Of a stretch of DNA of 60,792 nt, positions 24,225 through 40,719 are shown piece by piece; the first letter of the stretch is position 1, and the number at the start of each line of letters is the position of its first letter. The notes beneath the pieces were generated by a model. The model searched no databases. It saw nothing but the letters and a program-made list of their open reading frames with translations, and was not told the origin of the DNA. Made by a program: the position numbers and the translations under genes. The stretch spans positions 308,064 through 368,855 of the forward strand of contig KE159538.1 of NCBI GenBank assembly GCA_000403215.2, written 5' to 3'. Origin of the DNA: Lachnospiraceae bacterium A4. Its GTDB lineage: Bacteria > Bacillota > Clostridia > Lachnospirales > Lachnospiraceae.

Positions 24225-27200
24225 ATGGATGAATTTCTAATATTGCTCCAAGCAAAATTAGATGAGGCAAAATCAAAAGAAAATATTAATAAAACAGGTA
24301 TTCCTAATTTACAAAGTCAGCTTGATAAATTAAAAGTTCAGGTAGAGCTTGATCCAAAAGCTACTCAAACATTAGCTGATAATATCGGAAAACTAATCAA
24401 TCAGAAGATTGTTATTTCTGATATGAGTGTCAATCAAACACAGATAGTTAAAACAGGACAACAAATTGGTAAAATAATTTCTGATAATGCAAAAAAAGCA
24501 ATTAGTAATGTAAGTTCAAAATCTATTGGTAAATATTTCAAAGTTGATTCTTCTACTTCAAATCAGTTCAGAAACGAAATGGAGAAATTAGTAAAAGAAT
24601 GGACTAATACAAAAGGCAAACTTACGGATGTTAATATTCAAACTCGTACATCTTATGATGAAAAAGAAGCTAGAAATATTGAGAGACTCCATCAGGCGAC
24701 CGTTACATATAAGAACGAATTAGATGAGGTTATAAAGAAAACTATTGCTTGGAGGCAGATAGGCACTACTACTAATGCAAACGGAGAAGAAGAAATACTT
24801 CGTGGCTTTGTTGAGGTTGCAGGACGATATTCCAAGTCTATAGATACAGCAAGTGCAAAAACAGATAACTTTGCAAAGAAGCAAAAGGAAACTGTTGCCA
24901 ATATGCAAAACACTATTAATCAAATTACATCAAGGGTATTTGATTCTAATTCTTCAAGACCAATAACATCTGATTCATCATTAGAAAAACTAAATATCCA
25001 AGTAGCATATGTTGAAAACGCAATGTATGATTTGAAAAACGCTACTTCTACTACTTTTGATGACGCAAAGATAAAAGTACAAGATGAAATTTCACAATTA
25101 AAGATATTAGAAAAAGAGCTTAGAAATGCTGATAATATTTCTAATAAAATGAAAGGTACAGATGTTACTTCTGGTATATCAATAGCAAAAAATGATTTAG
25201 AGAAATTTAAAGCAGAAGCAAAAGATTTTCCTCAAATCACACAGACAATAAAAGATTTAGATAAAGCTATTACGAATGTTGGTGATGCTTCATCTTTAAA
25301 TGCATTTAATGACCAATTAAGAGTTGCAAGATCTGAATTAGCTAAAATCAAGTCAGAAACTTCTACTGTTAACAGAAATGAAAAAGTAGGTATCAATATA
25401 TCTGGATTGCAATCTAAGATTGCTGATCTGCAAAGAATAAGTCCTGAAATTAATAAATTTGAAACTGAAATAAATGGTGTCAAAGTTACTGTTCAAAGTT
25501 TATTAGCTGATTTATCAAAAATTAATACTCAAAGTGATTTTTCTGTTGTTAATTCAAAATGGAAAGCATTTACTGATGCTGCAAAATCTGCTGGTATTGC
25601 CGTTACAGATGTAGGAAATAGCCTTTCTCAATCAGCAAAAGAATCTTCACGACTATTAAAGGAATTAGAAAAATCATATCAGAGTATTAAGAATCTTCAG
25701 ATACGAAAAAGCACATTAGACCCTATTGCTGACAGTAGCAAAATTGCAAAATTAAATGAGGAAATTGCAAAAGAGAAAAATAACTATAATAACGTTTTTC
25801 GCTCAGCCAGTGCAAATGGAAATTTTGATATTTCAGCTTGGAAAGAAATTAAATCTGCAATAGATTCCGCAACAAAAAGCAAAATAGAGTATAATAATGC
25901 AGGAAAAATAGATTACTTAAATGGGCAAAAAAATAACTTATCTAATACCCTTTCAACCTTAAAATCTTCATTGATAGAAAACGGTTTATATACTGATGAA
26001 TTAAAGCAAAAAATAGAAACACTAGAATCATTACTAGTAAATATCTCTAACAAAGGTGATTTATCAGCATTTAAGACAAATTTAAAATCTATAGAATCCG
26101 AGATTGGAACGCTATCACAGATCAATAAAATTCAACTTTCATTTGAAACTGGAGGGTATGAATCCAAGGTTGAAACTTTGATTGCGCGAACACAGCAATG
26201 GACTGATGTAAACGGTAATGCAAGAATCAGCACTACTGCCCTGTCAACTGCATTGAACAATTTGGGCGATGCCTCTAAAGCTTTGTCAAATAACAATACT
26301 GTTGAAAATCAGAAGGCATTAATTGCGGCGGAAAAAGAATTAGATACCCAAATTAAAAAGGTTACTAACTCTATCAGAACAATGAATACAGATCTTGCCA
26401 AAGACTCTGCTGTTGCATCTTTGCATAACAGAGTCCAAGACTTTATAGGCAAAAACGGAAAAGCTGTAAAATACTTTGGTGCGGAATTAAATAAGATTCT
26501 AAACGAGACTGCTCAGGGTGCCGAAGTTAGTAAAACCAAATTAGCACAATTAGAGCAAAGTTTTGGAAATATTGGTGTTGCTGCCCGCAATGCTGGTAAA
26601 CTTGGCAAGACATTCTTCCAGACCTTACGAGAAGGAATGAGTTCTTTTAGTTATTGGACAAGTTCTACTTTTCTGGTAATGAAGGCTATCCAGTCTATTA
26701 AAGGTGGATTGGGAACTGTTAAAGCATTGGATACTGCTTTGGTTGATTTGAAAAAGACTACCACTATGACGAATAGTGAGTTGGACAATTTTTATTATTC
26801 TTCTAATAAAGTAGCGAAACAGATGGGCGTTACTACTGAGGAGATAATTAATCAAGCAAGTGCTTGGAGCCGCTTGGGATATGGATCGGCAGAAGCCGCT
26901 ACGAAAATGGCTAAATTAAGTTCACAATTTGCTTTAATCTCTCCAGGGATGGATGTTGACAAAGCCACATCTGGATTAGTCAGTATTATGAAAGCGTATG
27001 ACATTTCGGTTGATGATGTATTAGAAAAGATTGAAAGTAAAGTAAATATTATTGGTAACAATCTAGCTTTATCAAACGATAATATAGTTTCCATGTTACA
27101 AGACTCTGTATCTGCTATGGCAGAAGGCAGAAATACATTGGAACAGACAATTGCCTTAGAAAGTGCCGCTTACGAAATCGTACAAGATAATAGTGTTGGC

Positions 27201-27752
27201 AATGGGTTTAAGACCGTTTCTCTTAGGTTGCGCGGTCTAAATGAGGAAACTCAAGAACTTGATGATTCCTTAAAAACTATTAAAGGTGATTTATATGATT
27301 TAACTGGCGTGTCTGTCATGGAAGATGCAGATACATATAAGAGCACCTATCAGATATTAAAGGAGATTTCTGAAGTTTGGAACTCACTCACTGACAAAAC
27401 ACGTGCAGAAGCTCTTGAATTAATGTTCGGAAAATTAAGAAGCAATGTTGGCGCTGCTGTGCTAAAAAATTTCTCCGCAGCCGAAAGAGCAATGAATTTA
27501 ATGGCAGATTCGGCAGGATCAGCAGATAGAGAACTTGAAGTTGTTACCCAGAGTCTCGACTTCAAACTCAACCGCCTATCCGAAACAAGCACATCAGTAG
27601 CCCAAAACCTCTTTAAAAGAGATGACATGAAAACAGTTGTTGACGGATTTACATCGGTTATGAACGTCATTGACTCATTAACCTCCAAACTTGGATTGTT
27701 TGGATCTATCGGATTAGGAGCCGGTTTATTTGCTGGCTGGAAAAACGTCGGT
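24225..27752 (+). CDS. Tape measure protein, exon 1
   Basis: 1176 codons. Residues 1-800 are mostly coiled coil; residues about 815-1000 carry the TP901-type tape measure core (GLGTVKALDTALVDLKKTTT, EIINQASAWSRLGYGSAEAA). The protein sets tail length and is threaded into the tail tube. The exon ends at ...GCTGGCTGGAAAAACGTCGGT in the conserved GLFAGWKNVG region. Read on without splicing, the frame stops three codons later. GTCGGT (27747-27752) pairs with the intron guide GCCGAC. Exon 2 continues in the same frame (NVG then IFKTITDETT). Confidence 0.9.
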
Positions 27753-28261
27753 ATAGCTTAAATATATTAGTTAGCTATCAACAATCATTGTATATTGTTG
27801 TGAATGTGCCGACAGCATAGTTTTTTGATTCTTGTGGCAAAGACAAGAAGGTTCTATGCCTGTCATGAGATACATGATAGTAAATAAAATTCGTGATTCA
27901 TTTGTCGCGAAGGTCGATATGGTCTGAATAGACTCTTTGTGATAATACAAAGACGGGGAATCTTGTACCTATCATATAAAATATGATACTAAATGAGATC
28001 CGCAGGGAAGCCTCTCTTCTACTCATTTGTAGAATGATGAACCCTCACTGTAATGAAATGGCTACAGACGGTTAGATGCAACGCTGCCGTAAGAATATAC
28101 ATTCGATGCTATACTGAGATATGACAGTTTATTATTCAGTAGGAATCTTATCTCCTACTTTCATATCGTGGATGATAAGAAGGTCTATTTAGGGGTGGAG
28201 CCCGAAATAGATGAAATAGAACTAAAAACCAAAGGACTACCAGAGTAGAATCCAGTAGTCC
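27753..28261 (+). ncRNA. Group I-type ribozyme core of intron 1
   Basis: P1 is extended by two hairpins (ATAGCT/AGCTAT and CAACAAT/ATTGTTG). Group I consensus-like strings occur in order: GACGGGGAATC (27952-27962, P element) and GATCCGCAGGGAAG (27997-28010, Q element). P3 can be CGATATG (27915-27921) with CATATCG (28162-28168). P7 can be GGCTAC (28060-28065) with GTAGTC (28255-28260), but a local hairpin GGACTAC/GTAGTCC competes, so R and S are tentative. Hairpins at 28138-28159 and 28184-28209 could be P7.x and P8. Confidence 0.65.
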
Positions 28262-28265
28262 AAAA

Positions 28266-28484
28266 TTACCTATGTAATTCTGTCTCAAAAGAGACATCTT
28301 TGACATTGGCTTTTGCGTGAACATCTTTGTACTTTACCAATGTATTGCATAATTTACATACAATTTTGTATATGTAAGGCAATACAAATCGAATGGTGGC
28401 GTAAAAGAATATGAGATATGCTAATACGCAAACCATCCCATACACAGAGTCGCACTCAACAGCACTTCTAATTATATTTCCCAT
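28266..28484 (-). CDS. Small membrane protein at the left end of the cargo (72 aa)
   Basis: ATG 28484 (MGNIIRSAVE) follows CGGAGGTGG on the minus strand. Two hydrophobic stretches (VYGMVCVLAYLIFFYATI and FVLPYIYKIVCKL) and a polar tail. It starts right after the ribozyme core and runs against the tape measure transcript, so it would be expressed on its own, perhaps in the lysogen. Function unknown. Confidence 0.55.
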   Translation of the reverse strand: MGNIIRSAVECDSVYGMVCVLAYLIFFYATIRFVLPYIYKIVCKLCNTLVKYKDVHAKANVKDVSFETELHR

Positions 28485-28534
28485 ACGCCACCTCCGACAT
28501 TTGTTTTTGTTTTTAATATCATGCAATTAAAGGT

Positions 28535-28573
28535 GGCTTGTGTGGAGCAAGCCTATCTCGCTGTGGAGGCGAG
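28535..28573 (+). repeat. Left hairpin pair with loop TGTGGAG
   Basis: Hairpin L1: GGCTTG-TGTGGAG-CAAGCC (28535-28553). Hairpin L2: CTCGC-TGTGGAG-GCGAG (28557-28573). The two stems differ but the 7-nt loops are identical and are the exact reverse complement of the loops in the array at 38026-38117. Confidence 0.85.
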
Positions 28574-28688
28574 TTATTTTTGGAGGTGGCTACAGAATCA
28601 AATCTGAGTGCTGTAAAAATATTATATTCTATAATGTGATATAAATATAGTCAGAACATTTATTTGGATATGCTTATTGATAAAATTA

Positions 28689-28717
28689 TTGACATAGATT
28701 CATAGATGTGTCATAAT
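28689..28717 (+). promoter_or_regulatory. Promoter of antitoxin-like RNA 3
   Basis: TTGACA (28689-28694), 17-nt spacer, CATAAT (28712-28717). Confidence 0.7.
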
Positions 28718-28723
28718 GTTAAT

Positions 28724-28829
28724 AGCTAATAAATAAAAAGGTACTACCCGTAGAGCAAGCGGTTAGTCCCAAATTGAATATAGTTAAAAGATTATAACCG
28801 CATCAGATTGGAGCCTGGGCGGTTATTTT
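28724..28829 (+). ncRNA. Antisense RNA of type I toxin-like locus 3
   Basis: It runs from the promoter above to a terminator of 8 bp (ATAACCGC with GCGGTTAT, 28794-28826, plus T residues). Its 5' end (GGTACTACC at 28740 and GCGGTTAGTCC at 28759) is repeated, inverted in the DNA, at the start of the convergent toxin transcript (29011-29019 and 28989-29000), so both RNAs carry the same 5' motif in sense. Confidence 0.7.
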
Positions 28830-28906
28830 CGTTTGCCGATTTGATAAAACAAATTGGCGACTGCACATATTACAAGTATCAACTGTAAAGTTTCACTTAT
28901 AGTCAT
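28823..28906 (-). CDS. Small hydrophobic type I toxin-like peptide 3 (27 aa)
   Basis: ATG 28906 follows GAAGGAGGGGA. The product starts MTISETLQLILVICAV and ends YQIGKRK: one membrane helix with a short basic end, very like TxpA/BsrH and holin-like toxins. The minus-strand promoter has TTGACA at 29048-29053 and TACAAT at 29026-29031. The sequence is shorter than copies 1 and 2 and unlike them, though the RNA architecture is the same. Confidence 0.7.
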   Translation of the reverse strand: MTISETLQLILVICAVANLFYQIGKRK

Positions 28907-29025
28907 AACTGCAATCCCCTCCTTCACTTAGTATTTCTTCAGAGAAGATTATCTATGTAAACAGAGGGTATCAGTCCCTCTGAGAGAAGGACTAACCGCC
29001 TACCACTTTAGGTAGTACCACAATT

Positions 29026-29053
29026 ATTGTAACATACTATAAGATATTGTCAA
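29026..29053 (-). promoter_or_regulatory. Promoter of toxin-like gene 3
   Basis: On the minus strand TTGACA (29048-29053), 16-nt spacer, TACAAT (29026-29031). Confidence 0.6.
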
Positions 29054-29173
29054 TTCTTATATTATTTTAATCATGTGGGTAAATAGAAATAAGAAACGCC
29101 CATGTTTGTAATAAACATGAGTGTTTCCATTGTTACTACTCTTCTACCCACTGATGATCAGACTCCAAGTTTG

Positions 29174-29353
29174 CTATTGTTGTTCTTCTCGACTATTGTG
29201 TTCAAAGAAAGAACCTGAAATATCAAATCCTTTCAAAAGCCCAAAGTGTATATGGAATTCTTTTGTGTCCTTTGCCAGAACTAGACTTCCAATAAAACAT
29301 ACAGCAATAAGCAATAGAATCACAATAGTCACTGTTGTAATTATTTCTCCCAT
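29174..29353 (-). CDS. Single-TM small membrane protein (59 aa)
   Basis: ATG 29353 follows AGGAAGGAGGTG. An N-terminal membrane helix (TVTIVILLLIAVCFIGSLVL) is followed by a soluble tail with KEFHIHFGLLKGFDISGSFF. An imperfect hairpin with ATGTTT/AAACAT at about 29091-29130 could terminate it. It may be another toxin-like or exclusion peptide; the family is not recognised. Confidence 0.55.
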   Translation of the reverse strand: MGEIITTVTIVILLLIAVCFIGSLVLAKDTKEFHIHFGLLKGFDISGSFFEHNSREEQQ

Positions 29354-29705
29354 TCTTCACCTCCTTCCTGTACTAATATACAAGAAAAGGAGATAAGACT
29401 GGGAGAATCCCAAGATGTGTTTATACACTAGAATATCTTTCGTCCTTTCTGGTACTATGTACCTCAGTAGATTTTGTGCATAGCACTCCCACAGACATTT
29501 TTGCCAAGTATATTACCCTAGTGGTGACTAAGATGTGGTGTCATAGTCGTATATATACTTGATTTGTATTATACTATATTTTGTCAGAAATTGACACAAA
29601 AAATTTATGAATTATTTAACAAATAAACCATCAAAATATTTACAAATTCATTCCATTGTGCTACTCTGAAAATAACAAAATTTTAAATTTTTTGGAGGAA
29701 TTGGA
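29354..29705. other. Long leader of the 59-aa gene and gap
   Basis: On the minus strand a TATAAT box (29568-29573) would start a leader of about 200 nt before the 59-aa gene, with several short inverted repeats (for example GGGAGAATCCC). No gene is seen between it and the DUF262 gene on the plus strand. Confidence 0.4.
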
Positions 29706-30677
29706 ATGGATTACACATGTAGAACTAAAACATTACAGGCATTGACAAAAGCTATAGATAAAGGAACCATTCTTTTGTCACATAAGCTGCAGCGTCCAGA
29801 GGGACAATGGAATCGCAGACAGAAAACAGATCTGATTGATTCTCTACTCCGCAAGTACCCAATTAATCCGACTTATGCGATCAAAGAGGTCGGAATATCT
29901 TCTGTAATTGACGGTGTACAGCGTTTAAGCTGTGTTCGTGATTTTCTTTCAGATAAGTTTGCGTTATCAAAAGATATGGAACCTGTAATGGTTAATAATG
30001 AAGAAAAGTCTTTAGCTGGACTGAAATTCAGTAAATTAGATGACGATACCAAGGATGCGATACTTAATTCAGAATTACAGATGTATGAGCTAACTGATTG
30101 TACCGAAAAAGATGTTCGTGAAATGTTCCGTCGTCAGAATGCGGGTAAACCTCTAAATGGCAAGCAACTTCGTGTTATACATGAATCTGATGAATTTAGC
30201 GAGATTGTTTACTCTCTTGCCACTCACCCATTTATGGACAAACTTATGACAAAAGCGCAGCGTAAAAACGGTACTGACAGGGATTTAATTATCCAGACAT
30301 TGATGCTGATCGAAACCAATCAGGAAAATGATTTTACTTCATTCAGGACAAATGACATGGACATTTTTGTAATGGATCATTCCGATTCTATTTCGCAAGA
30401 TAAAGTTGATATGCTGGAGTCGGCGTTGGATAAATATGACGAGTCATTTGAAAAGATAAAAATGCCTGTGACTTCTGTTTCATTTATACTTTACAGTGGA
30501 TATAGGATTGTCAAGGATAATAAGGATTTCTCTAAGCTAGTGGAGTTGATTGATGAATTCTTGACAGGTTATGATTCCAATGAAAAATATAAGCAGTATG
30601 TACAGTCTGGTACTAGCTCGAGTGAAAATGTACGTGGAAGACTTGACTGGTGGAGAAATAAGATTAAGACTTTGTAA
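29706..30677 (+). CDS. DUF262 (GmrSD-N/ParB-like) domain protein
   Basis: 323 aa. The N-terminal 100 residues have the DUF262 layout: HKLQRPEGQWNRRQKTDLID (target loop), LLRKYPINP, then SVIDGVQRLSCVRDFL, where the family usually has DGQQR. Residues 140-200 continue with FRRQNAGKPLNGKQLR. DUF262 domains are found in restriction of modified DNA (GmrSD) and in other defence systems and are thought to hydrolyse nucleotides. Here the HNH partner domain is absent, so it may be a stand-alone regulator or defence protein. TTTGGAGG precedes the ATG. Confidence 0.8.
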   Translation: MDYTCRTKTLQALTKAIDKGTILLSHKLQRPEGQWNRRQKTDLIDSLLRKYPINPTYAIKEVGISSVIDGVQRLSCVRDFLSDKFALSKDMEPVMVNNEEKSLAGLKFSKLDDDTKDAILNSELQMYELTDCTEKDVREMFRRQNAGKPLNGKQLRVIHESDEFSEIVYSLATHPFMDKLMTKAQRKNGTDRDLIIQTLMLIETNQENDFTSFRTNDMDIFVMDHSDSISQDKVDMLESALDKYDESFEKIKMPVTSVSFILYSGYRIVKDNKDFSKLVELIDEFLTGYDSNEKYKQYVQSGTSSSENVRGRLDWWRNKIKTL

Positions 30678-30689
30678 TTATTTATTTTT

Positions 30690-30720
30690 GTCAGGAAGTA
30701 TATAATGACTTCCTGACTTT
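30690..30720 (+). terminator. Terminator after DUF262 gene
   Basis: GTCAGGAAGT pairs with ACTTCCTGAC (10 bp, 8-nt loop), followed by TTTTAT. Confidence 0.8.
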
Positions 30721-30810
30721 TATGGTCGAAATTTATATATTCCTATAGATTTTTGAAAAAATATGGTATATAATATTATTTATTATATGTATATAAAGGA
30801 GACATATATT

Positions 30811-31332
30811 ATGAATAATATTTATGAACCAGATACAAAGTTTAATAAAATCTTTATGTTTATAGGTAATACAATAACAATAACAACTGGTTGTATTGGG
30901 GTTATATCATGGATTATTACTCAAATAACTAAAAACATCCCTCAAGTACCCACTTGGTTATCTATTACTTTTAAGTATTTATTTCACTTCTGTGTTGTTG
31001 CATTTATATTTGGAATTATATTTATATTAATACGAATTATTTATGTTGGGATAAAATCAAAATCTGAATCATTATATATTCAACGTAAAACAACAGAATT
31101 TTTACACAGGCATCTGATTCATAAAATTCGGAATAACATCGTTGAATTAGAGCCTTTATCACTAAAATTACAAAAGTTTTCAAAGGAAAACAACTCAGAT
31201 GCAATTTCTGAGTGTTATAATAAAGAACTAGAAATACTGTCAAAAAACTTAAAAGGTTATGTTAATTCTTTAGCCCAATATTTAACAGATTACAGAGGTT
31301 CAATATTGGATCTTCAAATCTACATAAAATAA
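30811..31332 (+). CDS. Two-TM membrane protein
   Basis: ATG 30811 (MNNIYEPDTK) after AAAGGAGA. Two membrane helices (about residues 13-36 and 50-76), then a helical cytosolic domain of about 95 residues. This helix-pair-plus-effector layout resembles small defence or exclusion proteins, but no named domain is recognised. It lies next to the DUF262 gene and may act with it (inference). Confidence 0.6.
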   Translation: MNNIYEPDTKFNKIFMFIGNTITITTGCIGVISWIITQITKNIPQVPTWLSITFKYLFHFCVVAFIFGIIFILIRIIYVGIKSKSESLYIQRKTTEFLHRHLIHKIRNNIVELEPLSLKLQKFSKENNSDAISECYNKELEILSKNLKGYVNSLAQYLTDYRGSILDLQIYIK

Positions 31333-31448
31333 ATGAGTCGAAATTTTGTTGTTATTTCGTTCTTTTTCAGTATTCGAAGATCTAGCCAGTGTAATAATTT
31401 CTTAACTTCTATATCATACGGTTCTGTTGTTTTTGTTATATCAGAAGA

Positions 31449-32189
31449 TTAAACTATTTCTTCATCCGATATAATTGTTAGTGTTGTTGTATAACCAAAA
31501 TAATAATCTTCTGAAATAGATACAGTACATTTTAAATATGAATACCTTTTGTTAAGTGAATATATAATACTTGATCTATAATACCCATTCATTATTACAT
31601 TTGTCCTAGTATTTCCATAAGAATCTTTAACTGTATTCATATATTGTAAATGTTGGCTTTTATTTAGAACATTCTGACCAAATAAGTTAGCTTTTTCAGC
31701 AATAACTTTACCTATAAATAAAGTATCATCTTTTATAGTAAAATTTTGACCATCAGAAATTAAACTTTCCACAATTTCTCTTGAAAAGTAATTTCTGCCA
31801 TCAATTGTTACCATAGAGTTATTTTTGTTTATAGCAATATCTTGTGCGTCCATACACAATCCTAAATTATTATAAGAAATAACAGGATTATCAATTAATT
31901 GTGATTCAAGGTTAGTATTTATATTCTTCTATTCCATATAATCTACAAAATATTGTGAGTTTAGAGCTTTCAGTGTTTCATTCTCATTTATTAATTTATT
32001 ATATTGTGCAATAAAATCGTCAATACTGTTTACTGTCACAGTATTATTATCACCATTAACTGTTGTTACCTGAGAATATAATTGTTGTACCGCATTTTTC
32101 TCTCCTGTATTTCTTCCAATGAATGTAGCATTAACTGTTGCGACCGCCCCAATAATTGCTACAATAATTGTTACTGTATTCTTTTTCAT
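31449..32189 (-). pseudogene. Membrane-anchored surface/stress-type protein interrupted by one amber codon
   Basis: Two ORFs in one frame are separated by a single TAG (31929-31931) and no other lesion: the frame from 32189 to 31449 is 247 codons. The first part has a membrane anchor (IIVAIIGAVATVNATFIG) and a helical linker; after the TAG the frame reads on through SQLIDNPVISYNNLGLCMD, INKNNSMVTIDGRNYF and SDGQNFTIKDDTLFIGKV, a well-formed domain common in clostridial phage membrane proteins. Either a recent nonsense mutation or a recoded or suppressed stop. The second part has no good ribosome site. Confidence 0.6.
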
Positions 32190-32272
32190 ATGTATTTTTC
32201 CTTTTTTTATTTTTTGTTATAAAATCATACTACTTATATAATTAATAAGTAAATCTATTTAATAAAAAACAA

Positions 32273-33475
32273 TTATTTACGGTTTATTTCTTTATTATCA
32301 GGATAAGATATGTAGTAATCATTTTCTATACCACTTATATGTTGTAAATCAAAAGTTTTGTTGTCTATATTTATATAATGAGAATTTATAGAAGATATTT
32401 TGAATTGGACATTTCTTACTTCAGAAGAAATTATTTTTTCATCAAAACCATTAAAAATGTTAAATTCGGTATAAAACTCCATATTACATGATTTGTTAGG
32501 AAAAAAACATATTGGAATATCCAAAATTTTTCCAGGTGGAATTATCTCATTGACATAATATTCTATCCTATCTTTATTTAAATTAGCATTAATCATAATT
32601 CCATATACACCATAAAAACCTTCGTTACCTCCTATCGCATCTATTTCAGTTTTATTATTATATAAATATACTTGGCAAAGGTTTTGAGAATCTTGTACTA
32701 TTTCATCTATTTTTACTTCACAAAAAGGTCTAATTGTAATATATTCGTTTTCAGAAATATCAGGAAATTTTATAACTTTATTATTATCAAGAAACTCAAC
32801 AGTAATTGAATCACTTGCTTGTAATTTGGGTATTCTTACAATTAAATCTTCTGCATTAAAATATTTAGATAATATATTCTCTGTATCCTTTATTAACAAT
32901 TCTATATTATATGCATTGCTCCATCCATGATTACACACTGTTAAAAAAATTTTTTCATAATCTGTACATAAAGAAACACTTATATACGGTTGTGATATAG
33001 GAATAATGTTATTTGCAACAATACTAAATTTGTTAACTTTGACTTCATGATCTGTAGGATTACTTATATTCAGTATAAAAACACAGTTCTCCTCAAAATA
33101 ATATTTTTCTTTATCTTCAGATAAATCTGTATAATCTTTAATATATACATTTTTAAATCTATCATCTGATAGAATTGCATAATCTAATTTTAAATTATTT
33201 ATATTAATATTAGCATTATATTCAGTATTAATGCTATCTTTGTTAGTGGAACTTTCTTTTAATCTGTGATTATCTACAACATTGATAGTATTATCACCAT
33301 CTCCATGAATTATAATTCCATTACCACTATTTTTTTGTATATAATCATCGCTGGTTTTGGTATTAACTAATGTATAAACGCCCACTATTATTGTCATAAC
33401 ACTAGCAATAACTGTAATTAATTTTATTATTTTTTTCAATTTCAAATTTGATTTTTTTCTTTTTGTTTTTTTCAT
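32273..33475 (-). CDS. Membrane-anchored extracellular protein (400 aa)
   Basis: ATG 33475 (MKKTKRKKS) with AGAGGA upstream. A very basic N terminus is followed by one membrane helix (LITVIASVMTIIVGVYTLV) and a long exported beta-rich domain, with NGIIIHGDGDNTINVVDN just outside the membrane. Probably anchored in the membrane and exposed outside. It is a candidate surface-modifying or superinfection-exclusion gene; function not recognised. It is next to the amber-interrupted gene and shares its orientation. Confidence 0.6.
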   Translation of the reverse strand: MKKTKRKKSNLKLKKIIKLITVIASVMTIIVGVYTLVNTKTSDDYIQKNSGNGIIIHGDGDNTINVVDNHRLKESSTNKDSINTEYNANININNLKLDYAILSDDRFKNVYIKDYTDLSEDKEKYYFEENCVFILNISNPTDHEVKVNKFSIVANNIIPISQPYISVSLCTDYEKIFLTVCNHGWSNAYNIELLIKDTENILSKYFNAEDLIVRIPKLQASDSITVEFLDNNKVIKFPDISENEYITIRPFCEVKIDEIVQDSQNLCQVYLYNNKTEIDAIGGNEGFYGVYGIMINANLNKDRIEYYVNEIIPPGKILDIPICFFPNKSCNMEFYTEFNIFNGFDEKIISSEVRNVQFKISSINSHYINIDNKTFDLQHISGIENDYYISYPDNKEINRK

Positions 33476-33578
33476 TTTAATCCTCTTCAAAAATGAAATA
33501 TATCGTAGCTCTGTTATTAGGTATCTGTCCGATACCTGCTTCGCTTGTTATTATTTTGTTGTGCTATATTAGTAGATC

Positions 33579-33695
33579 CTAAGAGATTAAATTTACTAAT
33601 TTATTACCAATAGTTTTAAAAGTTCTATACAAAAAGAAAACTGTTATAACTATAAGTATTATTAGAAATACTAGTAAAATCATAAATGATATCAT
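33579..33695 (-). CDS. Single-TM micro-protein (38 aa)
   Basis: ATG 33695 after AAAAGGAGATTG. The product is MISFMILLVFLIILIVITVF plus a short polar tail (TIGNKLVNLIS). It resembles small regulatory or toxin-like membrane peptides. Confidence 0.55.
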   Translation of the reverse strand: MISFMILLVFLIILIVITVFFLYRTFKTIGNKLVNLIS

Positions 33696-33906
33696 GTATT
33701 CAATCTCCTTTTTCTTCTAAAGCATGATATAGTTTACCATATTATAACAACTTGTGAAAGTCTGAACATTAATTCGACATATTTATAATATACTATTCAA
33801 GACAATTAACAGTTCTGTTGATTTGTTTTGGATATTTGTTTAGTGACAGTGCCTTGGAAAAGATTTTAGACTACTGCTCTGTTGACCATAAGAGAAAAAA
33901 TAATGC

Positions 33907-33958
33907 TTGACTTTTGGTTATCCAAATGTTAGTACTAGATTGTAAGTTTTGGATAACC
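33907..33958 (+). promoter_or_regulatory. Promoter and operator of the RHH gene
   Basis: TTGACT (33907-33912), 17-nt spacer, TAGTAC (33930-33935). An inverted repeat GGTTATCCAAA (33916-33926) / TTTGGATAACC (33948-33958) straddles the -10 box, the pattern expected of an autoregulated ribbon-helix-helix protein. Confidence 0.6.
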
Positions 33959-33974
33959 GAAAGTAGGTGTGAAT

Positions 33975-34157
33975 ATGTCTAATAAAATGGGACGACCTCT
34001 TTCTGATAATCCATGTAGGAATCCTATTGGATGCAAAATAACAGATGAAGAATTGCTTAGACTGGATAAGTATTGTAAGGAAAACAACACAACAAAGTCT
34101 GATGTAATTAAGAAATCTATTGCTCCAATCATAAATCCTAAATCAGAAAGTGAATAA
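33975..34157 (+). CDS. Ribbon-helix-helix (CopG-type) DNA-binding protein (60 aa)
   Basis: ATG 33975 (MSNKMGRPLSDNP). The pattern is RHH-like: GCKITDEELLRLDKYCKENN then TTKSDVIKKSI. A likely DNA-binding regulator that could bind the inverted repeat at its own promoter. Its transcript ends in a hairpin whose loop is antisense to the antirepressor leader, so one operon would produce both a protein and an RNA regulator. Confidence 0.7.
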   Translation: MSNKMGRPLSDNPCRNPIGCKITDEELLRLDKYCKENNTTKSDVIKKSIAPIINPKSESE

Positions 34158-34161
34158 AGAA

Positions 34162-34205
34162 TGAGAATCACTCTCCTACCGTCCAAAGTATTGAAGTGAT
34201 TCTCA
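34162..34205 (+). ncRNA. Terminator-like hairpin with antisense loop (c4-like)
   Basis: Perfect 11-bp stem (TGAGAATCACT with AGTGATTCTCA) and a 22-nt loop starting CTCCTACC. Loop bases 34178-34190 (ACCGTCCAAAGTA) are an exact reverse complement of 34907-34919 in the antirepressor leader; the CTCC in the loop can also pair with a GGAG site there. No strong T-run follows, so it may be a stable 3' UTR element and not a terminator. Confidence 0.6.
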
Positions 34206-34247
34206 CAAGCCTGTTTCCAGACATTTTCATTCTACTCTAAGTTTATC

Positions 34248-34751
34248 TTAAAATGGGCAGCCGTTTATTGGACGATCATAGTCTTTAAGTTGTTTTTCAA
34301 TCCACATTTTATATAAATCTATGTCAATAGTTTTTTCACAATATAATTTAAATATATCACACCATTTAGAAAAAAAGACTTGGAAGTTTTCATCTTCATG
34401 TAAAGTTAATATGACAGATTTAGTATCTGTGTTTATAACATCAATAATTGGAATTGTTGCTTTATCTTCATACCGAACATCTAATAAAGAAATAAATAAT
34501 TTGAAAAGATCCTTGTATGTCGTAATATGACTATCTGATACCATATTATCATTTAATCCACAAAGCCAATCTATTGAAATATTATAATTCTGAGCAATGT
34601 TCATAATCATGTCAAGAGATGGAGTCTTTACCCCTGTTTCATAAGAAGATACACTAACTGTTGATACATTAATACTTTCGGCGAATTCTTTCTGTGTTAA
34701 TCCCTTATTGACACGTAACTCTTTTATACGTTCTGATAATATACTGTTCAT
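34248..34751 (-). CDS. XRE-family repressor (CI-like)
   Basis: ATG 34751 (MNSILSERIK) after GGAGGG; the longer upstream start has no site. Residues 5-60 are a classical HTH_3 domain (GLTQKEFAESINVSTVSVSS, YETGVKTPSLDMI). The C-terminal 100 residues have no LexA-type peptidase, so inactivation would not be RecA-like self-cleavage. It faces the antirepressor gene, with direct-repeat operators in between. It is probably the lysogeny repressor. Confidence 0.8.
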   Translation of the reverse strand: MNSILSERIKELRVNKGLTQKEFAESINVSTVSVSSYETGVKTPSLDMIMNIAQNYNISIDWLCGLNDNMVSDSHITTYKDLFKLFISLLDVRYEDKATIPIIDVINTDTKSVILTLHEDENFQVFFSKWCDIFKLYCEKTIDIDLYKMWIEKQLKDYDRPINGCPF

Positions 34752-34812
34752 ATTAACCCTCCTTTTGTCTTTATAAGCCATCATACCATATATTTAAATA
34801 TAAAGCAATGAT

Positions 34813-34855
34813 TTTAACCAACAGTATTGACATTTAACCATCAGTATGCTATATT
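34813..34855 (+). promoter_or_regulatory. Promoter of the antirepressor with two operator repeats
   Basis: TTGACA (34827-34832), 17-nt spacer, TATATT (34850-34855). Two direct repeats TTTAACCAACAGTAT (34813-34827) and TTTAACCATCAGTAT (34833-34847), 20 bp apart (about two helical turns), overlap the -35 box and spacer. Probable binding sites of the XRE repressor. Confidence 0.75.
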
Positions 34856-34885
34856 AACTATAAAAAAGGAGGTGCAACTTTTATT

Positions 34886-34957
34886 ATACTAAACAGAACC
34901 ACTGGTTACTTTGGACGGTCACACAGGGTTCTGTTCGCTCACTACTGTCGCCAGTAG
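34886..34957 (+). other. Structured leader of the antirepressor with possible leader peptide
   Basis: The leader has AAGGAGGTG (34866-34874) far from the antirepressor start, an open frame of 23 codons (ATA start, low confidence) and hairpins AGAACC/GGTTCT and CTACTG/CAGTAG. The 13-nt antisense target (34907-34919) lies in the loop of the first hairpin. Pairing with the RHH-operon hairpin could change leader folding or translation. Confidence 0.45.
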
Positions 34958-35017
34958 GGTAAATTTATTATACCTTATTTGCGATGGAATTACAACAAAT
35001 TATTGGAGGTATATTGG

Positions 35018-35815
35018 ATGAACGAATTAAAAATTTTTAGCAACACAGAGTTTGGGAAGTTATCTGTAAATAATACAGAAAATGGAATTTACTTTTTTCT
35101 AGGAGAAGTATGTAGATGTCTTGGTTATACTAAACAAGCAAAAGGAAATACATATTTAAGAAAAGATAAAATTGAAAATATATGTGAAAGCCTTGAAATT
35201 AAAGGGTTGTCACCAAGTGACAACTTAGGAATTATTACATTAGACACTGATTTTGAGAATACTAGAATTACAGAAGATTCTTTATATGATCTAATACTTG
35301 AATCAAAAGCAAAGAATGCACGAAGATTTCGCAAATGGATCACAATGGAAGTTCTACCACAGATACGTCAAACTGGCGGTTATATTCCTATCCAAGAGGA
35401 AGAACCTAATGAAGTATTCCTTGCAAGAGCTGTTCAGATTGCAAATGAAACAATTAAGCGTAAAGACGAAATCATTGCAAACCAAAAGAAACGGATAGCA
35501 AATTTAGAAGAAACAGAAAAAGACTGGAAACTTCTTATGGATTGTAAAGGTACTTTTAGTGTAAATGAGATTGCACACTTTATCGGTATTGGTGAATATA
35601 AACTTTTTGCAAGAATGAGGGAAATTGGAATTCTGTTTAAAAATGAGAATGGTGATAATGTTCCTTATGAAAAACCTGTACATAAAGGTAAGTTTGCTTC
35701 TATCCCTGCTATCGCTCCTGATGGAACTGCCCATTTACAGACAAGAGTTTATCCAGATGGTATTTCTTACATAACTAAGCTGCTTCGTAAATATGGTTAT
35801 TTGGAGGTGGCGTAA
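35018..35815 (+). CDS. ant: Phage antirepressor (Bro-N plus KilA-C/ANT)
   Basis: ATG 35018 (MNELKIFSNTEFG) after TTGGAGGT. Residues 1-115 are a Bro-N domain (FFLGEVCRCLGYTKQA, RITEDSLYDLILESK, FRKWITMEVLPQIRQTGGY). A helical linker leads to a KilAC/ANT-type C terminus (FSVNEIAHFIGIGEYKLFAR, YPDGISYITKLL). Antirepressors inactivate phage repressors to trigger lytic growth. Control appears double: XRE operators on the promoter and an antisense loop on the leader. Confidence 0.9.
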   Translation: MNELKIFSNTEFGKLSVNNTENGIYFFLGEVCRCLGYTKQAKGNTYLRKDKIENICESLEIKGLSPSDNLGIITLDTDFENTRITEDSLYDLILESKAKNARRFRKWITMEVLPQIRQTGGYIPIQEEEPNEVFLARAVQIANETIKRKDEIIANQKKRIANLEETEKDWKLLMDCKGTFSVNEIAHFIGIGEYKLFARMREIGILFKNENGDNVPYEKPVHKGKFASIPAIAPDGTAHLQTRVYPDGISYITKLLRKYGYLEVA

Positions 35816-35988
35816 TGGAATACATAAAACTTATAGCATTGAACATTGACGACTTCTGTTCTTCCATTTTCTTTGAATATAATTATGCCGTGTCAGACAT
35901 TGAAAATGCTAAAAAGGACAAAAAAGATTTAGAATTAAAAGGATATGTATGTCTTATTGTGAAGACTACATCTAATATTAAGGTTTAA
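35815..35988 (+). CDS. Small acidic protein after the antirepressor (57 aa)
   Basis: The ATG overlaps the antirepressor stop by one base (taATG), so it is translationally coupled. The product begins MEYIKLIALNIDDFCSS; no motif. It ends before an inverted repeat AAAGAGA/TCTCTTT near 36025-36070 that may act as terminator. Confidence 0.6.
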   Translation: MEYIKLIALNIDDFCSSIFFEYNYAVSDIENAKKDKKDLELKGYVCLIVKTTSNIKV

Positions 35989-36171
35989 TTCATACATACA
36001 CATTCAAATAAATATAGAAATATGTAAAGAGATGGAACTAAATTGTTTGATTTGGCTCTGTCTCTTTGTGTACGCAGTAGAACTAATGTTTTGTATGGTA
36101 TTTTGTCATTAATTGCTGTATAATGTCATTATGGTAGAATATACCAAATTATAATTGATTGGGGATAAAGT

Positions 36172-36990
36172 ATGCCTTCAAAGAAGAAATCGTCGCAAAG
36201 GCATTATACGCTGTATTTAGACGAAAGCGAAACACATAAACATAACCCACATACCCATAAGAAATACGATTACCATTTTTGTATGGCAGGAGTGATTGTT
36301 CAAGATGATGATTATTATATATTGCAAAATGATATAAATGTATTAAAGGGTATAATTTGGAATGATTATACTATTCCAGAAGATATAATATTACATCAGA
36401 AAAATATATCTGATGCAGAAGACGGAAGGTTGGATAAAAATAAATATCCTGAATATGAAAGATTTTCAAAAAATATTAATCGGAAAAATTTTTATAAAGA
36501 ATTGAAAACAATTTTTACTAAAGGGATATATACCATTGTAGGCGGAAGTATAGGAGAGTCTGAACTAAATACAGCATTTTCAATTTCTGGTAAAAATAAT
36601 ACAGATGAATATTTAATATGTTTGCAAATGTTACTTGAAAATTATTGTCATTTCTTATGTCTACATAATGGAATTGGTAGAGTAATTTACGAATCAAGAG
36701 AATTGAAGGCAGACGAACGATTAAGAGATAAATTTTACCATATCAAATTAATGGGTTCTATGTACATTGATAAATACACTACCGGGAAGAGACTTCTCGG
36801 AATAGATATTGTTGAAAAATCGGCGAATTGCGCTGGTTTACAATTAGCTGATTTTGTTCCAAATTCTTTTGCCAGAGAACACACTGGTATTTCGCAATCT
36901 AAATACAATATATTTTCCACTCTAAAATATTTTAGATACGATGGTAATATTGGAGATAAAGATAGATTTGGAGTAAAATATATGCTTTAA
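36172..36990 (+). CDS. DUF3800 protein
   Basis: 272 aa. The N terminus has HYTLYLDESETH (DUF3800 catalytic-like Asp-Glu pair, about residues 11-21) and the C terminus has GLQLADFVPNSFAREH (about 221-236, the second acidic motif). This RNase H-like fold family often lies next to conserved structured RNAs (the DUF3800 RNA motifs of Weinberg and colleagues). Here a promoter-driven structured RNA follows immediately (37043-37204). The function of the family is unknown; a nuclease acting on or with the RNA, perhaps in defence, is inference. Confidence 0.85.
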   Translation: MPSKKKSSQRHYTLYLDESETHKHNPHTHKKYDYHFCMAGVIVQDDDYYILQNDINVLKGIIWNDYTIPEDIILHQKNISDAEDGRLDKNKYPEYERFSKNINRKNFYKELKTIFTKGIYTIVGGSIGESELNTAFSISGKNNTDEYLICLQMLLENYCHFLCLHNGIGRVIYESRELKADERLRDKFYHIKLMGSMYIDKYTTGKRLLGIDIVEKSANCAGLQLADFVPNSFAREHTGISQSKYNIFSTLKYFRYDGNIGDKDRFGVKYML

Positions 36991-37008
36991 TTTGTGCAAA
37001 ATGGTATA

Positions 37009-37037
37009 TTGACAGCAGAATATGCATATGTTAATAT
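37009..37037 (+). promoter_or_regulatory. Promoter of the DUF3800-associated RNA
   Basis: TTGACA (37009-37014), 17-nt spacer, TAATAT (37032-37037). Confidence 0.75.
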
Positions 37038-37042
37038 GTGTA

Positions 37043-37204
37043 TAAGGGTCGGGAGACGCTTTATGATTTGAAATATGCAGTGAACTGTGTATTGATTCCG
37101 CATAAAGAAAACCACAAGTTGTATGCATCCAAGGTAAAGATGCTAAGTCGGCAGAATTAAACGAGCCTTATACCAAAAAGACTACCGTGCTAGGTGGTCT
37201 TTTT
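37043..37204 (+). ncRNA. Structured RNA following the DUF3800 gene
   Basis: It has its own promoter and an intrinsic terminator (AGACTACC with GGTGGTCT plus T-run, 37179-37204). Helices seen: closing P1 TATAAGG (37041-37047) with CCTTATA (37166-37172); P2 CTTTATG (37059-37065) with CATAAAG (37101-37107) enclosing AATATGCAG/CTGTGTATT; and GCATC/GATGC. A multi-branched RNA next to DUF3800 fits the published DUF3800 RNA motif classes, but I cannot say which. Confidence 0.75.
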
Positions 37205-37258
37205 GTGTTGAGTAAATACTCTACTAGTTATAACTTTTCATCTTTATATATAGAAAAA

Positions 37259-37300
37259 AAGAAGATGTTTCAATACTTACAAAGAAACATCTTCTTTTGT
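37259..37300. terminator. Bidirectional terminator
   Basis: AAGAAGATGTTT pairs with AAACATCTTCTT over 12 bp, with A-runs on the left and T residues on the right, between the RNA gene and the convergent membrane protein gene. Confidence 0.8.
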
Positions 37301-37341
37301 GTATGTAAATGGTACACAAATATTTTAGAAAGGAAGTAAAC

Positions 37342-37992
37342 CTATGACTTTACAGATTTATTGCCATTACACTTAATCTCTCTTATAAGTAATATACTAT
37401 AAGGAACAATCCATAAAGCCATGCATACCATATTAATTCTTGAAATATGGATCATTTCGTTAATCAACTTATCACTTGTACTCCACATTTCCCACAAGCT
37501 ATGACGCTTAAAATGGTAAAACAAATAATAACTATTTACTGTTCCAATGAAAATAGTTATTATTAGAACAAACATATCAACCTTATTTTTAATACCTTGA
37601 ATAAATTGAATCAAAATATTACATGTTAGGAGGATACACCAAACAATAAGCATAAACATATACATATATGATTGAAACATAAGAAACTCAAAAATCATAC
37701 CTATAACGTTGATAACTACAAGTAAAATGCTTCTCCTCTTTGATTGCTCAAAAAGTAAGAAATTTGGTATGAATAATAAAACTGTACCAACTGTAAACAC
37801 AAGTATTCCAAGCCATTCAAAAGGTATTTTATCACCAAATTCTAAATTAAAATATTTACCAAATGGCGAAATTGTTTGATAAAAAGTACACTGCCCTTCC
37901 AACAAACCTCTACCTGTAACAGTTTCAACAGTAATCAATACTAACAACACAGATAACAGCATTGTTGATATAGCAATAATTTTCTTAGACAT
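37342..37992 (-). CDS. Six-TM membrane protein (216 aa)
   Basis: ATG 37992 (MSKKIIAISTM) after AAAGGGGTAGAG. About six membrane helices, including one at each end (AISTMLLSVLLVLITVETVT, MVCMALWIVPYSILLI) and an extracellular loop with a Cys (EGQCTFYQTISPF). It shows some similarity in layout to vitamin K epoxide reductase-like or transporter-like small proteins, without their motifs. Possibly a superinfection exclusion or lysogenic conversion gene. It is the last gene of the cargo. Confidence 0.6.
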   Translation of the reverse strand: MSKKIIAISTMLLSVLLVLITVETVTGRGLLEGQCTFYQTISPFGKYFNLEFGDKIPFEWLGILVFTVGTVLLFIPNFLLFEQSKRRSILLVVINVIGMIFEFLMFQSYMYMFMLIVWCILLTCNILIQFIQGIKNKVDMFVLIITIFIGTVNSYYLFYHFKRHSLWEMWSTSDKLINEMIHISRINMVCMALWIVPYSILLIREIKCNGNKSVKS

Positions 37993-38025
37993 AATACTCT
38001 ACCCCTTTGACTTGATATTATAAAT

Positions 38026-38117
38026 ACGCTACTCCACATAGCGTTAAAGCATATCTCCACAATATGCTAATGCAGATATCCACAATCTGCACAATGTATA
38101 ATCTCCACAATTATACA
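38026..38117 (+). repeat. Right array of four hairpins with loop CTCCACA
   Basis: R1 ACGCTA-CTCCACA-TAGCGT (38026-38044); R2 GCATAT-CTCCACA-ATATGC (38049-38067); R3 TGCAGAT-ATCCACA-ATCTGCA (38071-38091); R4 TGTATAAT-CTCCACA-ATTATACA (38095-38117). All stems are perfect and unrelated in sequence, whereas the loop is kept (one base change in R3). Loops are the exact complement of the TGTGGAG loops at 28541 and 28562. The array ends 13 nt before the 3' splice site. Confidence 0.9.
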
Positions 38118-38130
38118 CCTTTATAGTATG

Positions 38131-40719
38131 ATATTCAAGACAATTACAGATGAGACAACTTTATCTGGTCAAAGAATTGTAGGCGCATTACAAGCAAGAA
38201 AAATTGCACAGCAACAAGCAACTGCACAGTTAGAAATTGATATTGCATGTTTGAAAGAATATCAGGTTGCGTGTCAAAATGGAACAGTGACTACAGAACA
38301 GTTTGATGCCATTATGCATAAAGCAAGTGCTTCTGCTGTTGAATACTCTGCTAAGGTAAAGGCTGGTACTGGAACCGCACAATCATATGCAAATGCACAG
38401 AGAGCAACAAACTCAGCATTACAAGAAGTGTCTATTGGTGCTGGCATTGCTTCAAAAGCAGTGAAATTATTCTCGACTGCTTTAAATATGATAGCATTTA
38501 CTGCTATTATACAAGGCATTAGCTGGTTAATCGGAAAAGTTGATGAATGGATTGTTACAGCTAAAGAAGCCAAAGAATCTGCTGATGCTTTCAAACAAAG
38601 TTTATCTACATTCTTTAATGAAACACAGACCAATCTAAAAACTATATCTTCATTATCAGATAGATTTAATGAATTAAGCAAAAATGTAGATGATAATGGT
38701 AAAAAGGTTGGTGGTACTGAAGAAGAATATGCTGAGTTCTTAGATATATGCCAACAAGTCGGACAGATAATGCCAGAATTAATCACAGGATATACTGCCG
38801 AAGGCGAAGCAATTATTACGTTACAAGGAAAAGTTGATAGTTTAACTGATTCTTACAGAGAGGCAATTCGTACAAAAGCTGCACTATTTTTGTCAAACGG
38901 TGACGAAGATGGAAATTCTATAAAAAGTTTCTTTGAAGATTACAATGATTTTGTCAATGGATATCAAGGAGTATTAGGATTAAAAACATCGCCCTCTGGT
39001 CAAAATACCGCAGAAGAATTTGAAGAGTATTATGGATATGATAAAATTCATGGATGGTTGTCTGATGTTACAGACGCAACACTCGAAGACTTAGAAAAAT
39101 TAAGAGCTGGTACAACTGAATATGTATATTTAGCTAGAGTATTAAAAGAAGCTGGTTATGAAATATCTGAAATTTCTGCCGAAAACTATAACGCTGTACA
39201 TGATGTATTTAATAACAGAATGAGCGTTATGGAAAAAGGAATTACGGATAGAGTTACAAATATCAGAACTGCCTTTCAAAATATGCTCTATGCAGATAGC
39301 GACTACTGGAAAATTGATGATGAAAATGTAATATCTGCAATTAATTCTCTTTATGCTTCTATAGATGATGAATTTATAAAGCAAAATGAGTTATTTAACC
39401 AAACAGCATTACAAACATTTGAAAGTGATTTTGTGTCACTATTCAATAATGATGCTACCAAAAAAGCAATGGTTGATTTCTATACTCCTATTGCAGATGA
39501 TGAGACTGTACAGAATTACACAAATAGAGTAAATTCTGCATTACAAGAAATTCAATCATATTGCAACAATAATGGGATTGTTATTCCAATTGAGGTAAAC
39601 AATTCTATTGATACACTTGTAAATAGCGTAAAAGAAAAACTCCAAGATGATTTTGACGATAAAGTTGGAGAATTAACACTTGAAGAACTACACATTGCGG
39701 CAGAACAAATAGAAGTTCCAGAAGGCACTCTCCTATCTTGGGATGAACTGATTGCTAAGATTAAGGAAGTTCAAAGTTCAACCTCCAACATTGAAAACCC
39801 CATTTCATTATCTCTCACCGAAACAATAGACCAGCTCAACACCCAGCTTAAACCAACCTTCGATTCCTTGAAATCAGCATATGAAAACATCTTTACGACA
39901 GACGACAATGGAAAACCATTATTCACGCTTGAAAACGTAGACTTGTCAATGCTCGATTCCATTAAATCTGCTATAGATGATTTGAACGAAAATGAAGAAT
40001 TGGGAATAAGTATTGACTACACTTCATTTGAGAATCTAGCAAGAACACTTACTGATACTGCATCTACTGAGAATGATGTTAGAAATGGTTTTAATGAGTT
40101 CATCACAGATATCGTTTATGGAACAACTGCATTAGATAATTTAAATGCTTCTGACGCAAAGCTGGTTGAAACCATGTTGGAATCTCTTGGTGTAACAAAT
40201 GCGCATGAAATTGTATATGAGTCTTTAATTGCCAAAACAGAAGCTCTTACTCTGGAAGAACAATTATTATCTTCTGTGGGTGGTGATTTGACAAATGCTA
40301 CTGCTGATAAAGTATTGGCATTTCTGAATCAGGCTGGGGCAAGTGAAGTTGCTAGGAATTATCTTATCAAATTAATTGCAGAAGAACAGGTATTTAGCAA
40401 TCAGGATTTAGATGTATCAGGTAAGATATCTAAATTACAGGAGTTGGCTCAGGCATATGGGCAGACTGCTTTAGCTGCAAAAATTGCATCACAAGAAAAA
40501 GCAAATGAACAATCTCACACTGTAGGAAGCTGGAGTGAAGCTGATTTACAACAATTCCAAAAAGAATGGAATGACGGATTGAGTAGTGTTAGTATTGACT
40601 TTTCTCCAAAAAGTTCTTCAAAATCCAAAAAATCCGGCTCATCCAAATCCGAAAAAGACTTATGGCTGGAGGAATACAAAAGAAAACTCGCAGAATTGCA
40701 GAATTTATTAGCAAAGGGT
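38131..40719 (+). CDS. Tape measure protein, exon 2
   Basis: 863 codons in frame with exon 1 (IFKTITDETTLSGQRIVGAL). Contains membrane-like segments used in tail threading (IASKAVKLFSTALNMIAF), then long helical regions. The exon ends in LAELQNLLAKG at AAGGGT (40719), which pairs with the guide GCCCT of intron 2. Unspliced, the frame would stop at 40758. The ATG at 38128 is only the end of the intron, not a real start. Confidence 0.88.

What the first reader, a model, noticed from the sequence alone, without database searches (positions are those of the whole stretch)
28535..38117. Complementary hairpin-loop arrays at both ends of the intron cargo: a possible kissing-loop clamp
Two hairpins at 28535-28573 have loop UGUGGAG; four at 38026-38117 have CUCCACA (one AUCCACA). 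Six stems of unrelated sequence all pair perfectly while the 7-nt loops stay constant and are exactly complementary left to right. This is what selection for loop-loop pairing in RNA would leave. It would loop out 9.5 kb and bring the 3' splice site, 13 nt beyond the right array, to the ribozyme. I know of no described example.
Basis: partly seen in the sequence, partly recalled or inferred. Interest (0 to 1): 0.97.

Follow-up and report, generated by a model that had tools for sequence, protein, structure and literature searches.

The report
Loop array docks distant splice site
A row of small RNA hairpins beside the far end of a very long self-splicing intron in a phage tail gene appears to pair with the intron's own ribozyme, pulling its two ends together across thousands of bases of cargo genes, some of them defence-like.

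Summary
The six hairpins are real and far beyond chance. The right array (loops NTCCACA, 13 nt before the inferred 3' splice site) belongs to a family: hairpins of unrelated stems and near-constant loop, followed by TAGTAYG|ATATTCAARAC, end group I-like introns of 1.0-16.2 kb at one site of phage tape-measure genes. The left array is not the general partner: it goes with an inverted toxin-gene copy of the unit, and 7 of 12 introns lack it while keeping a right array. A better partner is a UGUGGA-type element in the ribozyme's 3' (P9) domain, found in 16 of 19 introns and about tenfold denser there than in cargo. In one relative (L232) this element changed by two bases (UGUGGA to UGUUGG) and the three array loops changed to match (UCCACA to CCAACA twice, CUAACA by wobble) while the hairpins stayed alignable: compensatory covariation. 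A long P10 between the intron's 5' part and the 3' exon is a second tether. Several cargo genes resemble anti-phage defence genes. Splicing is untested, and the covariation is one event.

The parts
24225..27752 (+). 5' exon of the tail tape-measure gene, ending ...NVG (GTCGGT|)
   Evidence: ORF; of 11 viral loci that match the 5' exon none crosses the junction (residue 60 of the query): 9 end at residue 60-63, 2 at 53
27753..38130 (+). group I-like intron, 10378 nt
   Evidence: P1, P10, terminal G, in-frame exons
27747..27752 (+). 5' strand of P1 (GTCGGT), with U.G at the 5' splice site
   Evidence: pairs with GCCGAC at 27808-27813
27796..27813 (+). P10 strand plus internal guide GCCGAC
   Evidence: 11 of 12 pairs with the 3' exon start, two wobbles included
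28168..28172 (+). GTGGA in the ribozyme 3' domain, first copy
28184..28211 (+). ribozyme-tail hairpin with loop GTGGAG, proposed partner of the right-array loops
   Evidence: L184 and L173 carry the same loop on different stems
28269..28484 (-). small toxin-like membrane ORF of the inverted module (judged by eye)
   Evidence: no Pfam match
28508..28526 (-). inverted, degenerate copy of the 3' splice-site signature (3 mismatches of 19)
28535..28573 (+). left array: two hairpins, loop TGTGGAG
29706..30677 (+). cargo: NsnA-like / GmrSD N-terminal protein
   Evidence: PADLOC NsnA E 2.3e-34, Pfam GmrSD_N E 1.7e-12
33795..33835 (+). internal relic of a 3' exon start with a partly self-complementary strand behind it
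   Evidence: ATTCAAGACAATTA ... TTTTGGATAT, read; exact 14-mer match
34248..34784 (-). cargo: HTH_3 regulator
34997..35815 (+). cargo: BRO-N/KilAC antirepressor-like protein
36172..36990 (+). cargo: DUF3800 protein
37342..37992 (-). cargo: protein without Pfam match, membrane-like by eye
38026..38117 (+). right array: four hairpins, loops CTCCACA x3 and ATCCACA
38124..38142 (+). 3' splice-site signature TAGTATG|ATATTCAAGACA
   Evidence: recurs across the family
38131..40758 (+). 3' exon of the tape-measure gene (IFKTITDET...)

Best explanation
The right array is a docking site for a far-away 3' splice site. In the tape-measure pre-mRNA a group I-like ribozyme lies at the 5' end of the intron and its 3' splice site lies 1-16 kb downstream, behind cargo genes. 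UGUGGA-type elements in the ribozyme's 3' (P9) domain (in the window GUGGAG in the loop of the hairpin at 28184-28211, and GUGGA at 28168) base-pair with the UCCACA loops of the tandem hairpins that end some 10-20 nt before the 3' splice site. Several like loops give a redundant landing pad. A long P10 (the ribozyme strand next to the guide sequence, paired with ATATTCAARACA of the 3' exon) then aligns the exons. The left TGTGGAG array is an inverted copy of the unit that came with a toxin-like gene; it offers the same loop letters and may substitute for the ribozyme element in some introns. Shown by sequence: the arrays, their near-constant loops, their place at the 3' splice site, the enrichment of the complement in the P9 domain, P1 and P10 pairing, one concerted covariation. 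Inferred: splicing itself, the contact in the cell, its effect on splicing.
For: 72 of 83 perfect 7-nt-loop hairpins (stem >=6) in the 130 nt before the signature have loop core TCCACA, and 88 of 116 TCCACA sites there have stems >=5, against 10 of 44 sites further upstream, some of which lie in other units. In 109 distinct hairpins of right-end units (chosen for stem and loop, so one search is the fairer count) stem columns 2-6 carry 0.04-0.15 bits, the closing pair 1.0, loop columns 2-7 1.77-2.0; 93% Watson-Crick at six stem positions against 15-34% when slid. Of 28 inner stem mismatches in 100 right hairpins 12 are G.T and 4 A.C on the tape-measure sense strand, as expected of RNA. GTGGA is in the 200-220-nt P9 segment of 17 of 19 introns (16 without L180's terminator-like loop) against 3.4 +/- 1.7, maximum 10, in 2000 shuffles; 20 in 4160 nt there against 30 in 70475 nt of cargo. 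The GTGGAG loop sits on different stems in window, L184 and L173. Covariation: L232 has UGUUGG where L198 and L191 have UGUGGA; its three array loops hold CCAACA, CCAACA and CUAACA where the alignable hairpins of L198 hold UCCACA. P10: 10.5 of 12 pairs on average in 15 introns (L178 a copy of L174) against 5.6 in controls. Weaker, by eye: a loop UCCAUA and an upstream UGUGGA in L217, which pair with one wobble; the ends of that intron were not established.
Against: No transcript or splicing data. The P9-element hypothesis was formed after looking at the data, and the introns are related, so the shuffles overstate independence. Only one covariation event is known; the first loop base varies without a clear match. 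In L232 two of the three hairpins have lost closing pairs and have loops of 10-11 nt. L179 (1.0 kb) has an array but no UGUGGA element; L177 and L180 have ATGGAA at the tail loop and L225 has no GTGGA outside its left array. L173 has UGUUGG with UCCACA loops, though it also has a separate GUGGAG hairpin and a left array. GTGGA is not always unpaired in predicted ensembles (mean 0.62 against 0.45 background; L172 0.01, L191 0.10, L181 0.20). Array size does not follow intron length (by eye). Rfam finds no group I match, and P1 is short in 6 of 15 introns.
Confidence: 0.74

Rival explanations
1. One reading: the left array (TGTGGAG) kisses the right array (CTCCACA) and loops out the cargo.
For: Exact loop complementarity in the window; left arrays on different stems (window, L006, L181) keep at least one TGTGGA loop; in L177, L180 and L225 the ribozyme element is missing and the left array could replace it.
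Against: Left array absent in 7 of 12 introns and in L198 and L213, among them introns of 6.2 and 16.2 kb (L172, L174). The left arrays that I inspected go with a toxin module and an inverted splice-site signature. Left hairpins of L006 and L177 have A.C mismatches on the sense strand, G.T on the other.
Confidence: 0.15
2. DNA-level mobile-element ends: arrays plus signature are recombination or transposition sites of cassettes that stack at the 3' exon.
For: Several introns hold 2-4 units in tandem, internal ones followed by a short copy of the 3' exon start; the toxin module is the same unit inverted; hairpin ends are known in ssDNA transposition (recalled).
Against: The array units examined lie next to tape-measure 3' exon starts or short copies of them rather than at scattered sites; no transposase or site-specific recombinase among 10 window cargo proteins scanned, small ORFs not all included; the G.T over A.C bias favours RNA of one strand; it does not predict complementarity or covariation with the ribozyme.
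Confidence: 0.15
3. The hairpins bind a protein (phage or host) that aids splicing or regulates the cargo or tail gene.
For: A constant loop on variable stems is also the mark of a protein-bound RNA hairpin.
Against: Does not predict the UGUGGA element in the ribozyme or the concerted change in L232; no candidate protein was looked for beyond the family scans.
Confidence: 0.08

Closest known systems
IStron (group I intron plus IS, e.g. CdISt1, BcISt1)
   Same: Group I ribozyme at the 5' end, cargo placed after the P9 domain, 3' splice site at the far end of the cargo (PMC4227781, passages seen).
   Different: IStrons are 482-2582 nt and their ORFs are flanked by inverted repeats predicted to form one stem-loop. 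Here introns reach 16.2 kb, no tnpA/tnpB was matched among 10 window cargo proteins, and a tandem hairpin array stands before the 3' splice site.
Peripheral loop-loop contacts of group I introns (P13, P14, P16; recalled)
   Same: Base pairing between hairpin loops that stabilises a group I fold.
   Different: Those lie within the compact ribozyme. Here one partner is a redundant array up to 16 kb away, beside the 3' splice site.
Phage group I introns with homing endonuclease genes (recalled)
   Same: In phage structural genes, at one conserved site, exons joined in frame.
   Different: Cargo here is a set of defence-like and toxin-like genes; among the window cargo proteins scanned the only homing-endonuclease match is weak (PADLOC E 0.003, the antirepressor-like ORF).

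Membership tests
Group I intron | P1 with U.G at the 5' splice site | tested here: met
   Six pairs with GTCGGT/GCCGAC in the window, GTGGGT/GCCTAC in L006, GCAGGT and ACAGGT/GCCTGT in L191 and L173. In 6 of the 15 introns (L172, L177, L180, L193, L194, L213) only GGT/GCC pairs in one run.
Group I intron | P10 with the 3' exon and a terminal G | tested here: met
   Mean 10.5 of 12 pairs in 15 introns, all ending in G.
Group I intron | P7 core pairing | tested here: inconclusive
   In the 9 type B sequences printed I read covarying P7 strands by eye (GAGCA/TGCTC, GAATC/GGTTC, GACTG/CAGTC, GAGTG/CACTC, GAGTA/TACTC). The window's own core type was not resolved.
Group I intron | Match to an Rfam group I model | tested here: not met
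   None at gathering in the window or 7 relatives; none at relaxed thresholds in 27600-38300 or 27700-28350.
Group I intron | Self-splicing | not testable with these tools
   No transcript or splicing assay available.
IStron | Insertion-sequence component (tnpA/tnpB) | tested here: not met
   10 cargo proteins of the window, no transposase. Among 10 cargo proteins of L174, L180 and L184 only a below-cutoff DDE match in L174.
IStron | Inverted repeats forming one stem around the ORF region | not tested
   Not searched systematically; the hairpin arrays occupy the 3' position.

The most novel reading that the evidence does not exclude
A new splicing architecture: ribozymes that capture a 3' splice site up to 16 kb away through a multivalent array of like loops, which lets temperate phages keep stackable defence-gene cassettes inside an intron of an essential tail gene. 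Old 3' splice sites left behind by stacking are silenced by a nearby copy of the P10 strand that folds back on them.
Probability: 0.5. Interest if true: 0.95.

Novelty: new variant of a known kind. Interest (0 to 1): 0.88.

Why it matters
A group I ribozyme must hold both splice sites, and known cargo-bearing ones such as IStrons stay below 2.6 kb (PMC4227781, passages). A multivalent loop array would show how a self-splicing RNA handles an intron of 10 kb and more, makes long-range RNA docking testable in a small reporter, and explains how prophages can hold defence-like islands inside a working tail gene. It also gives a sequence signature by which annotators can join split tape-measure genes and find these islands.

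Tried and rejected
Rfam search for a group I match: none. DNA similarity of 27700-28700 to phages: none. Empty site: joined tape-measure exon peptides against the phage collection gave no match; in viral contigs none of the 11 loci that match the 5' exon, the window included, crosses the junction, so no uninterrupted allele was seen. First-base loop covariation between arrays and ribozyme elements: no clear signal, judged by eye. Array size against intron length: no trend by eye. CCAACA-type arrays elsewhere: 11 stretches, only L241 (same contig as L232) is a unit of this kind; the other 10 lack array and IFKT exon and look like chance. TGTTGG-type ribozymes: 3 stretches; L244 is the L173 contig, L245 the L232 contig, L246 a contig with no signature match. 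One search read several loci from one file as one sequence by mistake; parsed correctly from then on. Six of the 60 units were dropped as spurious before the counts (window+6609, L184+11078, L184-8485, L186+10344, L188-14030, L212-11633). Literature: the searches listed 20 of 32, 5 of 5, 8 of 28, 8 of 20, 8 of 143 and 8 of 38 papers; no listed title or abstract start speaks of hairpin arrays at group I 3' splice sites. I saw passages of PMC4227781 and of the others only the listings. P13/P14/P16, homing introns and ssDNA-transposon hairpins are recalled.
Full report
Observation. The six hairpins are present as described, with perfect stems of 5-8 bp and loops that are exact complements except one ATCCACA. 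The host genome has the three-loop pattern only here. The tape-measure gene is split: 5' exon ending GTCGGT at 27752, 3' exon starting ATATTCAAG at 38131, joined in frame as ...NVG|IFKT....

Family. The motif TAGTAYGATATTCAARAC gave 23 stretches in viral contigs, the window's own among them (L130, L134, L142, L147 and L148 show no array and look like chance). With a TCCACA before it the motif gave 22 stretches in genome contigs (record titles name mostly Lachnospiraceae and other Clostridia), and a looser form matched 5 of 397 genomes of the host's family and 4 of 392 of its order, the host itself counted in both and the two samples overlapping. Wider regions gave 60 raw units with 141 hairpins; six units were dropped as spurious. 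Twelve introns with both ends, L178 being a copy of L174, run from 1023 to 16194 nt; the exons of the 11 printed are open and in frame. Of 11 viral loci that match the window's 5' exon, the window included, none crosses the junction: 9 end at residue 60-63, 2 at residue 53, the junction being 60.

Structure of the arrays. In the 130 nt before the signature 72 of 83 perfect hairpins with 7-nt loops and stems of at least 6 bp have the core TCCACA, and 88 of 116 TCCACA sites have stems of at least 5 bp; further upstream 10 of 44 do, some in other units. Among 109 distinct hairpins, picked for stem and loop, stem positions 2-6 carry almost no sequence information, the closing pair 1.0 bit (mostly T-A) and loop positions 2-7 1.77-2.0 bits, with all four Watson-Crick pair types at each of the six stem positions counted. 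Inner stem mismatches in 100 distinct right hairpins are G.T 12, A.C 4, others 12 (one-sided sign test of 12 against 4 about 0.04, my arithmetic), pointing to RNA of the tape-measure sense strand.

The left array. Hairpins with TGTGGA-type loops (stem at least 5) are found in window, L006, L173, L180 and L184 but not in L172, L174, L178, L179, L191, L193 and L194 (L184 also shows two weak matches in its cargo), not in L198 and L213, and in L177. The left arrays that I inspected go with a small toxin-like gene and, on the opposite strand, with the splice-site signature followed by exon-like letters: the right-end unit inverted. So the clamp as proposed is not a general feature.

The better partner. 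The ribozyme 3' domain carries GTGGA in 17 of 19 introns; in L180 the only copy is in a terminator-like loop, so 16 of 19. Shuffles give 3.4 +/- 1.7, maximum 10 of 2000. Density is 4.8 per kb there (20 in 4160 nt, two of them in terminator-like loops) against 0.43 per kb in cargo (30 in 70475 nt), and 21 of 292 cargo windows of the same size hold it. In window, L184 and L173 the element is the loop GTGGAG of hairpins with different stems; in L194 it is TGTGGAG on a short stem. Exceptions are L179, the shortest intron, and L177 and L180, which carry left arrays; L225, also with a left array, lacks it too. In predicted ensembles the element is unpaired more than average but not always.

Covariation. 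L232, a 4624-nt intron, has UGUUGG at the place where L198 and L191 have UGUGGA, two substitutions. Its array is alignable with that of L198, but the loops hold CCAACA, CCAACA and CUAACA in place of UCCACA; two of its three hairpins have lost closing pairs and have larger loops. The changed loop positions face the two changed bases, giving G-C for A-U and U-A for G-C, with one G.U wobble in the third hairpin. The first 1.5 kb of this intron hold no left array (L228). L173 keeps UGUUGG with UCCACA loops, but has another GUGGAG hairpin and a left array.

Second tether. The strand 5' of the internal guide pairs with the first 12 nt of the 3' exon at 10.5 of 12 positions on average in 15 introns, control 5.6, control maximum 11. 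In L184 an unusual exon base is matched by its P10 strand.

Stacked units. Several introns hold internal copies of the signature followed by a short stretch of exon-like sequence and a stop. Of 21 internal copies 12 have, within about 80 nt, a strand that pairs with at least 10 of the 12 exon nucleotides, against 2 of 25 copies with an open exon (Mann-Whitney p 0.0002). I read this as silencing of decoy splice sites, or as the trace of cassette insertion. L185 and L195 have two long 3' exons in tandem.

Cargo. Window: NsnA-like/GmrSD_N, DUF3800, BRO-N/KilAC, HTH regulator and proteins without a confident family. Of 10 cargo proteins of L174, L180 and L184 that were scanned, a part of those introns' ORFs, three match NsnA, one NsnB and other AAA defence ATPases, one PDC-S60, one type IIG restriction-methylation, one weakly a DDE transposase, three nothing.

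Verdict. No experiment exists here, the group I core of the window's own ribozyme was not fully resolved, and the covariation is one event. The odds given for the rivals are not exclusive: the same arrays could serve in RNA and mark old DNA junctions.

Noticed in passing
window 2531-2639 (+) and 1010-1093 (+): drum RNA (Rfam RF02958) and a tRNA in the prophage.
   Followed up: no
window 28700-29400: Further small membrane-like ORFs on the minus strand beside repeat-like sequence look like type I toxin-antitoxin loci, read by eye.
   Followed up: no
window 3726-5186 (+): ORF with cysteine pairs and an endonuclease-like end between phage genes, perhaps a homing endonuclease; by eye only.
   Followed up: no
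L185, L195: Two long tape-measure 3' exons in tandem, each with its own array and signature; alternative C-termini or exon replacement.
   Followed up: partly
L174 3643-5130 (-): Weak, below-cutoff DDE transposase match inside the intron; L174's intron is 1.9 kb longer than that of its close copy L178.
   Followed up: partly
L176 about 8812-8920 (+): A cargo ORF start (ATGGATATTCAAAACATTACAAAT) repeats the 3' exon signature right after the start codon.
   Followed up: no
L006 12499-12581 (-): skipping-rope RNA (RF02924) inside the intron.
   Followed up: no
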